DNA of 64,000 nt, from positions 434,001-498,000 of the forward strand of contig CP091064.1 of the NCBI GenBank assembly GCA_021907015.1, read 5' to 3'. Positions 2,326 through 63,078 of this stretch are shown in pieces. A model generated the notes under the pieces. That model saw only the letters and a program-made list of their open reading frames with translations, ran no database searches and had not been told where the DNA came from. The position numbers and the translations under genes were made by a program. Position 1 is the stretch's first letter. Each line of letters opens with the position of its first letter. The DNA comes from Pectobacterium sp. PL152 (lineage in GTDB: Bacteria; Pseudomonadota; Gammaproteobacteria; Enterobacterales; Enterobacteriaceae).

Positions 2326-2742
2326 TTACGGCGTAATGACGGATGTTGTCAGACGTGAAATGCAGCACAGGCGATTTTGATTATCAAAAATCTCAATCTG
2401 CCACACCTGGCTACGGCGCTCAACGTGAAGCGCACGGCACACGCCCCGCACTTCACCTTCGCGCACGGCTCGCAGATGGTTGGCATTGATTTCAAGGCCC
2501 ACCACCTGCTGATCGCCCTCAGAACACAGATAGCCCGCGACGGAACCCAGTGATTCCGCCAGCACGACGGACGCGCCGCCGTGTAATAAGCCGAACGGCT
2601 GGCGCGTGCGAGAATCCACCGGCATCACGGCTTCCAGATAATCCTCCGCGATATGGGTATAGCGGATACCGACATGACCCACCATGCACGTTTGGCTCGG
2701 TTCGTTAAGTTGCTCAAGCGTAACCTGTCGTTTCCATAGCAT
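2326..2742 (-). CDS. menI: 1,4-dihydroxy-2-naphthoyl-CoA hydrolase (hotdog thioesterase)
   Basis: MenI (YdiI) removes CoA from 1,4-dihydroxy-2-naphthoyl-CoA in menaquinone synthesis and also hydrolyses other acyl-CoAs. The 138-residue protein is a single hotdog domain with the family motif QPFGLLHGGASVVLAESLGS, which carries the catalytic Glu after the HGG turn. The frame is open further upstream, but the start at 2742 (MLWKRQ) matches E. coli YdiI (MIWKRH). Its ATG overlaps the ydiJ stop as TGATG, suggesting translational coupling. E. coli has the same ydiI-ydiJ order. Confidence 0.92.
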   Translation of the reverse strand: MLWKRQVTLEQLNEPSQTCMVGHVGIRYTHIAEDYLEAVMPVDSRTRQPFGLLHGGASVVLAESLGSVAGYLCSEGDQQVVGLEINANHLRAVREGEVRGVCRALHVERRSQVWQIEIFDNQNRLCCISRLTTSVITP

Positions 2743-5700
2743 CAGATAATCTCCAGCAGGGCCTGTAGCGGATGGCGTAGTGCACTGCCTTCCATACGTT
2801 TCACCTGACTGCGGCATGAATAACCGGTGGTCAGGCAGCGTTTCTGCGGTAACTTCTGCAGCACCTGTTGCCAGGATAGTGCATAAATGCCCTGCGAGTT
2901 GGCGAGGTTTTTGGTTTCATGGCCGTAAGTTCCCGCCATGCCACAGCATCCGACGCTGACATTCTCCAGTTTGGCACCAAAGCGCGAGAAGATATCTGAC
3001 CATTGTTTCGTGCTGATCGGCAGCGCCGTGGTTTCCGTACAGTGTCCCAGCAGATACCAGGATTCGCCAGTGGCAGGCTGCGGTGTACTGTCTGCCAGTG
3101 CCGTCACCAGCCATTCATGCACCAGTTGCACCTGAAAATCACCACGCTTCTCACCCAGAATTTCACGGTATTCGTCGCGATAGCACAGCACCAACGCCGG
3201 ATCGACGCCTACCATCGGCATCCCCAGTTTAGCGACGCGGTTCAGGAAATCTGCCGTCTTCGACGCCGTTTTGGCAAAACGCTGCAAGAAGCCTTTAATG
3301 TGCTGCGCCTTCCCGTTCGGTGAGAACGGCAACAGCACCGGTTTCAGCTTCAGCTTTTCAATCAGATGGACGAAATCTGCCACCACCTGCGCGTCGTAAT
3401 AGCTGGTAAACGGATCCTGTACGATGAGCACGTACTGCTGGCGCACCGCTTCCGGCAACTGTTCCAACTGTTCCAGCGTGGTGTTGACGCCACTGTGTCC
3501 GGCAAACTGTTGGCGCAGCGACGGCGATGACAGCAGCGGTAAATCGACCATGCCGATCTGGCTGCGGCTCAGGTTATTCAGCAACGGCATTTTCAGGAAG
3601 AAGTTAAACGTCTTCGGGCTGCGCGCCATCAGCGGCGCATAGCTTTCAACACCGGCGACCAGATAGTCACGTACCGGACGCAGATAGCGTGTGTGATAAA
3701 GCTGTAGGAAGCGGGAGCGGAAACCGGGCACGTCAATCTTGATCGGGCACTGCGTTGAACAGGCTTTACACGCCAGACAGCCCGACATCGCGTCTTTGAC
3801 TTCGTGGGAGAAATCGTAATCCCCTGCTTCGCCTGCCAGGTATTGCGGGTTTTCTGGATAAACGCACGCAGGCTCAGCTTCTGCTGCGGCAGTGCCTTCT
3901 CCAGCGCGACCGGATCGACGCCCTGCTCCGCCAGCAGACGTAACCATTCACGCACCAGCGTCGCACGACCTTTCGGCGAATGAATACGGTTGCCGCTGAT
4001 TTTCATCGACGGACACATTGGGCTACGGGCATCAAAGTTAAAGCACAACCCGTTACCGTTACATTCCATCGCGCCACGGAACGCCGTACGCACCGTCAGC
4101 GGAATCGTGCGGTCGAACGTGCCGCGCTTGACCGCATCGACTTTCATCATCGGCGCATCCACGTCCAGCGGCGCGCAAATCTTCCCGGGATTAAGTCGGT
4201 TATCGGATCGAACGCCGCTTTGATGCGGCGCAGTTCGGCATACAGTTCCGGTCCAAAAATTCAGGGCTATACTCGGCGCGGAAACCTTTACCGTGTTCCC
4301 CCACAGCAGGCCACCATATTTGGCCGTCAGCGCGACAATCTGGTCGGAAAGCTGTTTCATCAGCATTTCCTGTTGCGGATCGCACATATCCAGCGCCGGA
4401 CGCACGTGCAGCACGCCGGCATCCACGTGACCGAACATACCGTACGTCAGGTTATGGCTGTCCAGCAGCGCGCGGAATTCTTCGATATAATCCGCCAGAT
4501 GCTGTGGCGGCACGCAGGTATCTTCCGCGAACGGAATCGGCTTCGCCTGCCCCTTGCTGTTTCCCAGCAGGCCTACGGCTTTTTTCCGCATGGCATAAAT
4601 ACGTTCGATTCCGGCCAGGTCGTTACAGGTTTGATAGCCAATCACCCCGCCTTCTCCGCTCGCCAGCAGCGTATCTAGCCCCTGACATAGCGCGTCGACC
4701 TGCCCGTTAATCAGCGTTTCATCATCACCGGCAAACTCAACGATATTCAGACCAAGCATTTCCTGATTAGGCACATCGGTAATCAGCTCGCTAACGGAAT
4801 GCCAGACGATGTCTTCGCGGGCCAGGTTTAATACCTTAGAGTCCACGGTTTCAACCGACAGCGCCTTCGCTTCTACCATGAACGGCGCATTGCGCAGCGC
4901 TGAATTAAAAGAGTCATACTTGATATTCACCAGACGGCGAATCTTTGGCAACGGCGTGATATCGAGCTTCGCTTCGGTGATAAAAGCCAGCGTGCCTTCA
5001 GCACCGGTCAAAATTCGCGTCAGGTCAAAGGTATGGAGATCGTCGCTGAACACATGGCGCAGGTCGTAACCCGTCAGAAAACGATTCAGCTTGGGGAATT
5101 TGTCGATGATCAACGCGCGCTGTTCGCGACAGCGGTGCAGCACCGTATGGTAAATACGGCCGATGGGAGAATCTTCTAACGCCAGCTTCTCTGCCAGCTC
5201 TACCGGCATCGCATGCGTATCCAGCATCTCGCCGCCCAGCAGAATCGCACGTAGCCCCAGCACATGGTCTGAGGTTTTTCCGTACACCAGCGAGCCTTGC
5301 CCCGATGCATCGGTGTTGATCATGCCGCCCAGCGTCGCCCGGTTACTGGTCGAGAGCTCGGGTGCAAAGAAGTAACCATAGGGCTTCAGGTACTGGTTTA
5401 GCTGATCTTTAATAACGCCCGCTTCGACGCGCACCCACCCCTGTTCAGGGTTAATTTCCAGAATGCGGTTCATATAACGCGACATATCGACCACGATGCC
5501 GCGATTCAGCGCCTGTCCGTTCGTTCCCGTACCGCCGCCGCGTGGAGTAAAAGTCAGCTCTGAAAAACGCGCTTCACCCGCCAGACGGGATAAGATCGCG
5601 ACATCAGCGGTTGAGCGCGGGAAAACCACCGCATCCGGCAAAAGTTGATAGATGCTGTTATCCGTTGCCATCGTCAGACGATCGGCATAGTTGGTCGCCG

Positions 5701-5791
5701 TATCGCCTGTAAATCCATTTTTCTTCAATGCTTCCAGAAAATTAAGCACCGGCTGAACCAGCCCGGGAGATTGCGTGATCTGTGGGATCAT
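2742..5791 (-). CDS. ydiJ: FAD-linked oxidoreductase/4Fe-4S protein YdiJ (frameshifted in this sequence)
   Basis: YdiJ is a ~1018-residue fusion of an FAD-binding GlcD/D-lactate dehydrogenase-like domain (N-terminal half; FTPRGGGTGTNGQALN, PELSTSNRATLGGMI), a 4Fe-4S ferredoxin-like segment (MSGCLACKACSTQCPIKIDV) and a C-terminal cysteine-rich CCG domain (VGCCGMAGTYGHE). Recent literature links it to D-2-hydroxyglutarate oxidation. The frame is broken at about 4298-4302, 4255-4259, 4204 and 3820-3823. At each point one added base in a G or T run restores the E. coli-like protein, and four such bases give 1017 residues. The breaks are therefore probably sequencing deletions. Start MIPQITQSPG at 5791. 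Confidence 0.88.
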
Positions 5792-5896
5792 TATTTTTTG
5801 ACCCTGTCCGTACATGATGTGTTTGCCAATATGTCGTGATATGCCTGTGAAGCGCGGTATATAGCCTAATCTTGATCGCTTAAGGATAGAGATACC

Positions 5897-61836: not shown

Positions 61837-62358
61837 TTACTTACGCTTTAAACTGGCTAATACGGCAAACGGATTTGGTTTTTCCGCCTCTTCAGGCAGT
61901 TGGCCAAACACCATGTCCGCTTCGGACACTTCACAGTGTTCAGAATCATGCACCGGGGCGATAGGCAACATCAGAATAATTTCATCTTCAATCATTGCCA
62001 GCAGATCGACTTCGCCAAACTCATCAACGCCGATCGGCTCATACGCTTCCGGTAACGCTTCGGCCTGCTCATCATTGACGACCGGGCTAAAACAGAATGT
62101 CGCATGGACTTGATGTTCAAACGGCTTTCCGCAACGTTGACACATCAGTGTGACCGTAACATCGGCGTTACCGTCAATCACTGCCAGACGCTGATTATCA
62201 ATATTGAAAGATAAAGAGGCCTGAACATCACTATCCACACTCACCACTGATTCGGCTACACGCTCTACTTGTTCCGGCGAATAGACACCAACGTAATCTA
62301 AACGCTTCTGAGCAGTGCGGACCGCATCAAGGGTTAAGGGTAATTTTACCTTTTGCAT
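61837..62358 (-). CDS. yceD: DUF177 protein YceD (23S rRNA accumulation protein)
   Basis: YceD is a DUF177 protein, conserved next to rpmF and linked to 23S rRNA accumulation. The 173-residue product has the CxxC pair in LMCQRCGKPFEHQV, a long acidic C-terminal half (EFGEVDLLAMIEDEIIL) and ends LASLKRK. It is the first gene of the yceD-rpmF-plsX-fab string, 16 bases before rpmF, and divergent from yceF. Confidence 0.95.
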   Translation of the reverse strand: MQKVKLPLTLDAVRTAQKRLDYVGVYSPEQVERVAESVVSVDSDVQASLSFNIDNQRLAVIDGNADVTVTLMCQRCGKPFEHQVHATFCFSPVVNDEQAEALPEAYEPIGVDEFGEVDLLAMIEDEIILMLPIAPVHDSEHCEVSEADMVFGQLPEEAEKPNPFAVLASLKRK

Positions 62359-62497
62359 AGGGCGCGCATATTAACGTCGTAACGACATAGAGTCAAAGAA
62401 AAAGGCAGTGATGCACCACCTTTCACCAATATTCGCTTCCAGAGCGGCGCACAGTTTAAAATGCCTTTCATCATTACGCTACGGTTTATCAAAAATT

Positions 62498-63078
62498 ATG
62501 CAGCAGATCGTTCTTGCCTCAACCTCACCATATCGCCGGGCCTTATTGGAAAAGCTGGCGATCCCCTTTATTTGCGCGTCGCCAGACATCGATGAAACCC
62601 CGCACCCTGATGAAAACGCCGTCGATCTCGTGATCCGCCTTGCTGAAAGCAAAGCCCGAGCGTTGGCCACGTACTACCCCAACCACCTGATTATCGGCTC
62701 CGATCAGGTTTGCGTTCTGGGAATGCCATCACGGGCAAACCACATAATAAGGGTAATGCAACACGACAGTTACAGCAGGCCAGTGGGAAATGCGTTTCCT
62801 TTTTTACCGGTTTAGCGCTTTTCAATAGTGCGACTCAGGAAATACAGAGCATCGCAGAGCCATTTGATGTGCATTTTAGAACGCTAACGGATGCGGAAAT
62901 TGACGGCTATCTGGAGAAGGCAGCCGTGGAACTGCGCGGGCAGCTTCAAAAGCGAAGGGCTGGGCATTGCCCTTTTGAGCGATTATCCGGGCGCGATCCT
63001 AATACGCTCATTGGGTTGCCGCTGATCGCGCTGATTCGGATGCTACAAAAGGAAGGCGTTAATCCTTTGACAGCGTAA
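62498..63078 (+). CDS. yceF: Maf-family m7GTP pyrophosphatase YceF (frameshifted)
   Basis: YceF hydrolyses m7GTP and related modified nucleotides to monophosphates. Start MQQIVLASTSPYRRALLEKL at 62498 carries the Maf N-terminal signature; the frame open from 62408 lacks similarity before this. NHLIIGSDQVCVL and RDPNTLIGLPLIAL are further family blocks. Breaks lie near 62722 (one base), 62922 (about two bases) and 62972 (T run, one base). Correction gives 194 residues, exactly the E. coli length, with PWNCAGSFKSEGLGI in the repaired region. Confidence 0.88.

What the first reader, a model, noticed from the sequence alone, without database searches (positions are those of the whole stretch)
2742..63078. 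Systematic one-base deletions break about two dozen conserved genes
In ydiJ, ydiK, ppsR, aroH, hmuT, hmuU, hmuV, selO, ydiV, lplA, btuE, btuC, cobB, mfd, thiK, tmk, mltG, pabC, yceF and several accessory genes I find close to 40 frame breaks. Nearly all are repaired by adding one base, mostly to a run of two to six identical bases (for example C run 4298-4302, A run 15743-15747, T run 20971-20975). Corrected lengths match the E. coli proteins, and tmk is normally essential. All shifts are in the missing-base direction. This is the signature of homopolymer deletion error in a long-read assembly without adequate polishing. Automated annotation would call many false pseudogenes here.
Basis: partly seen in the sequence, partly recalled or inferred. 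Interest (0 to 1): 0.7.

Follow-up and report, generated by a model that had tools for sequence, protein, structure and literature searches.

The report
Sequencing errors break Pectobacterium genes
About two dozen genes in this stretch of a soft-rot bacterium look broken, almost certainly because bases were dropped when the genome was assembled, mostly in repeats of one letter, so this is a data-quality problem and not biology.

Summary
Against 10 same-genus genomes the window has 47 small indels of its own in 60,987 compared bases: 36 of -1, 6 of -2, 4 of +1, 1 of +2. The same test gives each relative 1 to 6 of -1. They touch about two dozen genes. The excess is chromosome-wide: four other sites give 66 of -1 in 150,521 bases, relatives 1 to 7 each. 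Deletion rate climbs with run length: 3 of 81,987 conserved runs of 1-3 bases, 14 of 240 at 5, 13 of 56 at 6. Broken genes still look selected (third codon positions hold 80% of differences, 82% in other core genes). tmk and parC, essential in E. coli (recalled), are among them. A mutator origin is unlikely: 1,237 substitutions unique to this genome, 1,332 to its sister. Corrections: btuC carries two extra bases, not one missing; 27 of 110 placed deletions hit an unrepeated base. The profile resembles published nanopore R9.4 assemblies (PMC12007338), but no reads were available to prove it.

The parts
2745..5815 (-). ydiJ (D-2-hydroxyglutarate dehydrogenase), frame broken, 4 unique events
   Evidence: two ORFs match successive parts of NF049975
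6132..7315 (+). ydiK (AI-2E family transporter), frame broken, 1 event
   Evidence: two ORFs match successive parts of NF008216
11935..12788 (+). ppsR, frame broken, 1 event
   Evidence: NF049928 matched only to position 180 of 272
13035..14077 (+). aroH, frame broken, 1 event
   Evidence: profile positions 1-160 and 159-348 of 349 in two frames
15350..16164 (+). periplasmic binding protein (reader: hmuT), frame broken, 1 event
   Evidence: NCBIfam places it only near BtuF-type binding proteins
16164..17164 (+). FecCD/BtuC-type permease (reader: hmuU), frame broken, 1 event
17160..18020 (+). ABC transporter ATPase (reader: hmuV); net -2 near its 3' end, 0.95 of the G008 protein aligned in one frame
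17976..19423 (-). selO, frame broken, 1 event
   Evidence: PF02696 split 9-120 and 120-464
19611..20346 (-). EAL-domain protein (reader: ydiV), frame broken, 2 events
20473..21512 (-). lplA, frame broken, 1 event
   Evidence: catalytic domain and C-terminal domain in different frames
22929..23517 (-). glutathione peroxidase (reader: btuE), frame broken, 2 events
23530..24566 (-). FecCD permease (reader: btuC), frame broken by two EXTRA bases, not a missing one
   Evidence: +2 against 10 of 10 relatives; PF01032 split 2-155 and 162-311
24706..25428 (-). methyltransferase-domain protein, one event near its 5' end, 0.95 of the G008 protein aligned in one frame
25481..25820 (.). short conserved ORF (114 aa in G008), frame broken, 2 events
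25948..26649 (+). Crp/Fnr-type regulator, one event near its start, 0.98 of the G008 protein aligned in one frame
27256..28081 (-). cobB (Sir2 family), frame broken, 2 events
32381..35829 (+). mfd, frame broken, 1 event
   Evidence: NF007966 split 1-962 and 967-1147 of 1148
39691..40280 (-). TetR-type regulator, frame broken, 1 event
40323..41614 (+). MFS transporter, frame broken, 1 event
47525..48428 (-). APH-fold kinase (reader: thiK), frame broken, 3 events of mixed sign
53611..54263 (-). tmk (dTMP kinase, essential in E. coli; recalled), frame broken, 1 event
   Evidence: TIGR00041 split 3-109 and 106-196
54256..55269 (-). mltG/yceG, frame broken, 3 events
55287..56104 (-). pabC, frame broken, 1 event
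62498..63078 (+). Maf family (reader: yceF), frame broken; three unique deletion events inside (62716-62974), a fourth (62491) just upstream of the start
   Evidence: TIGR00172 split 3-76 and 76-185; assigns only two of the four to the gene, because the aligned span began at 62719; start taken from the G008 ORF

Best explanation
The frame breaks are consensus errors of a long-read assembly that was not adequately polished. The organism is a Pectobacterium (single contig, 5,019,495 bases). The base-caller or consensus step under-counted bases in runs of identical letters of about five or more and, less often, dropped single bases elsewhere. Shown: position, direction, run-length dependence, presence in all five regions sampled, absence from the relatives compared, no selective relaxation, no excess substitutions. 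Inferred: that the living cell has intact genes, and that the platform was nanopore (R9 type) without sufficient short-read polishing.
For: Unique -1 events: 36 in 60,987 bases in the window and 66 in 150,521 bases at four sites 1 Mb apart, against 32 in 551,645 (10 relatives) and 20 in 549,973 (5 relatives). Deletions against insertions in this genome: 113 (-1, -2) to 13 (+1, +2) over the five regions. Deletions by conserved run length, window plus sites: runs of 1-3, 3 of 81,987; 4, 4 of 811; 5, 14 of 240; 6, 13 of 56; 7, 4 of 13; 8-9, 1 of 5. Relatives: 1 deletion in 2,022 conserved runs of 4 or more in the window (7 of the 10 tested) and 3 in 2,663 at the sites (4 of the 5 tested). tmk and, at the 2.9 Mb site, parC are broken. 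Third-codon-position share of differences to G008: 0.797 in 21 broken genes, 0.816 in other core genes; control G003-G008 0.789 and 0.812. The Kastor study of R9.4 assemblies reports mostly false deletions, tied to runs of two to eight, A/T ahead of G/C, with a small share at non-repeated bases (PMC12007338 section 6).
Against: 27 of 110 placed deletions lie at non-repeated bases, though some may be misplaced beside substitutions. Deletions are clumped (113 events in 56 bins of 4 kb, variance/mean 1.94), which plain run-length error does not predict; uneven coverage or partial polishing could cause it, and bins without aligned relatives add zeros. No significant association with GATC or CCWGG, so there is no independent methylation mark of nanopore data. 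Nanopore drafts can also be insertion-rich, depending on the polisher (PMC8011154 passages). In the window +1 events (4) also exceed those of each relative (0 to 3), if slightly. rpoC (4 kb) and mutL are whole. Broken genes are somewhat more divergent than other core genes (0.058 against 0.042), though equally so in the control pair (0.084 against 0.063). No reads were seen.
Confidence: 0.97

Rival explanations
1. The strain is a mismatch-repair mutator (mutS itself is split into two frames in this assembly) and the indels are real mutations in runs.
For: mutS matches TIGR01070 in two pieces in different frames. Mutator indels also rise with run length (PMC8510543 passages).
Against: MMR-defective E. 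coli lines gave 30,061 substitutions to 5,324 indels (PMC8510543), so about 100 extra indels should bring several hundred extra substitutions. This genome has 1,237 unique substitutions against 1,332 in its sister G008 in the same columns of four of the five regions (the 2.9 Mb site was left out). Deletions, not insertions, carry the excess. Essential-type genes are hit. mutL is whole. At the measured rate a gene of 2.5 kb such as mutS is expected to be hit about once by error alone (my arithmetic).
Confidence: 0.01
2. Real pseudogene formation: a young host-restricted or degenerating lineage.
For: Many broken genes; other Pectobacterium genomes do carry annotated pseudogenes (122 and 70 in LJ1 and LJ2, PMC9088014 passages).
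Against: The codon-position pattern of broken genes is close to that of other core genes; very recent breaks would escape this test. Breaks are mostly single-base deletions tied to run length. tmk and parC are among them. Genome size is normal for the genus.
Confidence: 0.005
3. A refinement of the best explanation rather than its opposite: mostly assembly error plus a few real strain-level indels, such as the intergenic insertions and perhaps the two extra bases in btuC.
For: +1 events at the four sites occur at about the rate of relatives (0.47 per 10 kb against 0.18-0.53). In the window 3 of the 4 +1 events are intergenic or unassigned. Relatives show 0 to 6 unique events of each kind in the window, so a handful of real ones is expected.
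Against: The btuC +2 breaks a gene that is intact in all 9 relatives tested beside G008, so it may be error too.
Confidence: 0.6

Closest known systems
Residual homopolymer indels in nanopore R9-type bacterial assemblies (Kastor, PMC12007338; Homopolish, PMC8011154; R10.4 study, PMC9262707)
   Same: Deletion-dominated as in Kastor's section 6, run-length dependent, A/T runs the more numerous sites (28 of 43 deletion pieces in the window), a minority at non-repeated bases, many false pseudogenes, completeness score still high
   Different: The platform of this genome is not known here; clumping at 4 kb scale was seen; per conserved run of 5, G/C runs lost a base more often than A/T runs here (5 of 42 against 9 of 198)
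Mismatch-repair mutator spectra (PMC8510543)
   Same: Indel rate rises with run length; mutS reads as broken here
   Different: No substitution excess, excess almost only in deletions, essential-type genes hit

Membership tests
Homopolymer deletion error of an under-polished long-read assembly | Indels unique to the assembly, not shared by independently sequenced relatives | tested here: met
   47 events unique against 5 to 10 relatives each; 79 at four other sites against 2 to 5
Homopolymer deletion error of an under-polished long-read assembly | Strong bias to deletions | tested here: met
   113 deletions to 13 insertions over five regions
Homopolymer deletion error of an under-polished long-read assembly | Rate rises steeply with run length | tested here: met
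   3 of 81,987 at runs 1-3 to 13 of 56 at runs of 6
Homopolymer deletion error of an under-polished long-read assembly | Genome-wide and indifferent to gene function | tested here: met
   Five of five sampled regions (224 kb of 5.02 Mb); tmk, parC and mutS among genes hit
Homopolymer deletion error of an under-polished long-read assembly | Accurate reads show the full-length runs | not testable with these tools
   No reads available
Nanopore-specific error | Enrichment at methylation motifs (GATC, CCWGG; recalled) | tested here: inconclusive
   Lowest P 0.056, GATC within 10 bases of 7 of 32 non-run events; 15 motif-width pairs tried in two classes, uncorrected
Mismatch-repair mutator | Excess of substitutions, transitions above all | tested here: not met
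   988 transitions unique here against 1,094 in G008 over four regions (sums mine)
Ageing pseudogenes | Relaxed codon-position pattern in broken genes | tested here: not met
   Third-position share 0.797 against 0.816; very recent breaks would escape this test

The most novel reading that the evidence does not exclude
The runs really are short in the chromosome and the cell makes working proteins by slippage at runs during transcription or translation, so that a 5 Mb genome lives with some two thousand frame breaks.
Probability: 0.003. Interest if true: 0.95.

Novelty: not a real feature. Interest (0 to 1): 0.05.

Why it matters
The assembly is held as the one genome of its species in the collection used here (per the tool's description) and scores 100% complete, 0.51% contaminated. 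A quarter or more of the conserved genes sampled read as broken: 17 of 47 core genes not intact in the window, one of them by the window's edge, and 30 of 112 at four other sites. Gene-loss or pseudogene claims drawn from this genome would mostly be false, and the completeness score does not warn of it.

Tried and rejected
A strict rule that all covering relatives (of five) must place the gap at exactly the same base found 11 of -1, 1 of -2, 3 of +1, 1 of +2. It lost events beside substitutions, as a looser list showed, so it was replaced by a rule tolerating 12 bases of placement. Methylation-motif association gave nothing significant. An alignment-free census of run lengths does not separate this genome clearly: runs of 6 number 29.0 against 32.2 to 53.3 per 64 kb in relatives, runs of 7 lie within their range. 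The comparison of protein identity between broken and other genes (0.958 against 0.981 in the window, 0.937 against 0.983 at the other sites) was set aside because tblastn pieces run on out of frame; the codon-position test replaced it. Mutator and decay explanations were rejected as given above. A search for the assembly size in the library found no paper (one way of writing the number), so the strain was not named. A search for Pectobacterium with homopolymer and frameshift listed 5 papers, none opened.
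Full report
What was claimed.

Where the window lies. It is bases 434,001-498,000 of a single contig of 5,019,495 bases. PpsA is 99% identical to that of Pectobacterium aroidearum L6. The window is 93.3% identical to L6 over 21,321 aligned bases and about 95% to the nearest held genome, G008. G003 is close to L6 (98.7%). G004's contig has exactly the length reported for P. colocasium LJ1 (4,912,018; passages of PMC9088014 seen). 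The species of the window itself was not named.

The observation. I aligned the window to ten of the 17 same-genus genomes and kept indels of net one or two bases on which at least 80% of at least five covering relatives agree. Result: 36 of -1, 6 of -2, 4 of +1, 1 of +2 in 60,987 bases. Each relative, tested in the same way against the others and this genome, shows 1 to 6 of -1, in total 32 in 551,645 bases. Of 47 core genes (G008 ORFs intact in at least 6 of 9 other relatives), 30 are intact here, 14 frame-split, 1 with stops, 2 partial, one of these by the window's edge; the 9 relatives give 374 intact, 45 absent, 4 partial and none split of 423. This selection favours relatives. Domain scans show the halves of ydiJ, ydiK, aroH, selO, lplA, btuC, mfd, tmk and the Maf protein matching successive parts of one family (for lplA, its two domains) from different frames.

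Corrections. Not all shifts are missing bases. The gene at 47525-48428 carries +1, -1 and -2, and the Maf gene a -2 besides -1 events. Of the 47 events, 35 lie in the 56 genes used and 12 outside or unassigned; at least one of the 12 (62716) does lie inside the Maf gene. Of 113 deletions in five regions, 110 could be placed cleanly (2 had several gaps, 1 could not be placed): 71 lie in runs of 4 or more in the relative and 27 at a single unrepeated base.

Run length. Only runs whose flanks match and whose length at least 90% of at least five relatives share were counted (at the other sites all of at least two or three), so most events drop out: 12 deletions remain in the window. Pooled over window and four sites, deletions number 3 of 81,987 runs of 1-3, 4 of 811 of 4, 14 of 240 of 5, 13 of 56 of 6, 4 of 13 of 7, and 1 of 5 of 8 or 9. 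Seven relatives give 1 deletion in 2,022 runs of 4 or more in the window; four give 3 in 2,663 at the sites, and 5 deletions at runs of 1-3 there.

Genome-wide. At four sites near 0.9, 1.9, 2.9 and 3.9 Mb (40 kb each; 4, 5, 2 and 5 relatives, two of those at 1.9 Mb covering about half), all covering relatives had to agree. This genome shows 66 of -1, 5 of -2, 7 of +1, 1 of +2 in 150,521 bases; relatives show 1 to 7 of -1 each, 20 in 549,973 bases. +1 events are at the relatives' rate there (0.47 against 0.18-0.53 per 10 kb). The pooled rate is 4.8 of -1 per 10 kb, about 2,400 for the genome by extrapolation from 211,508 bases, some 10% of which would be ordinary divergence. Of 112 core genes at these sites 24 are split and 6 stopped; relatives pooled give 279 intact, 45 absent, 3 stopped, 2 partial, 0 split (again selected as intact in relatives). 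One of the split genes encodes ParC. That tmk and parC are essential in E. coli is recalled, not tested.

Is it real biology? The 21 broken genes show nearly the same third-position share of differences as other core genes (0.797 and 0.816; control pair 0.789 and 0.812). They are somewhat more divergent (0.058 against 0.042), but so they are in the control pair (0.084 against 0.063). So no relaxation is seen; very recent breaks would escape this test. mutS is itself split while mutL and rpoC are whole, so I tested the mutator idea by relative rate in four of the five regions: 1,237 substitutions unique to this genome and 1,332 to G008 in the same columns. In MMR-defective E. coli lines substitutions outnumber indels 30,061 to 5,324 (PMC8510543, passages), so the observed indel excess should have come with several hundred more substitutions. 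It did not.

What it resembles. The Kastor study describes an R9.4 nanopore assembly whose indel errors are mostly false deletions, tied to runs of two to eight, A/T runs most, a few at unrepeated bases (PMC12007338, abstract and section 6 read). Homopolish reports systematic homopolymer indels and excess pseudogenes, and also that the balance of insertions and deletions depends on the polisher (PMC8011154, passages). The R10.4 study says that the high-quality tier can be reached despite many frameshift errors (PMC9262707, passages). The match is close but does not prove the platform; motif enrichment was inconclusive, and the clumping of deletions (variance/mean 1.94 in 4 kb bins) is unexplained.

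Verdict. Ordinary artefact, confirmed and extended from the window to the chromosome. Site-by-site corrections are not given.

Noticed in passing
G000:C1:3729689-3732210 (L173, L174): mutS of this genome matches its family in two pieces from different frames; on the evidence here this is most likely one more assembly error.
   Followed up: partly
window 28000-35200 and 56200-62400: Deletions are clumped: none in the first stretch and one in the second, many elsewhere; over 56 bins of 4 kb variance/mean is 1.94. Uneven coverage or partial polishing is possible.
   Followed up: partly
window 23989: btuC is broken by two extra bases rather than a missing one, the only +2 event in the window.
   Followed up: partly
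G000:C1:2925868-2928135 (2.9 Mb site): parC is frame-broken in this assembly, another gene essential in E. coli (recalled).
   Followed up: partly
five sampled regions, deletions at unrepeated bases: About a quarter of deletions (27 of 110) hit unrepeated bases; several stand just before CC or GG by eye, not tested.
   Followed up: no
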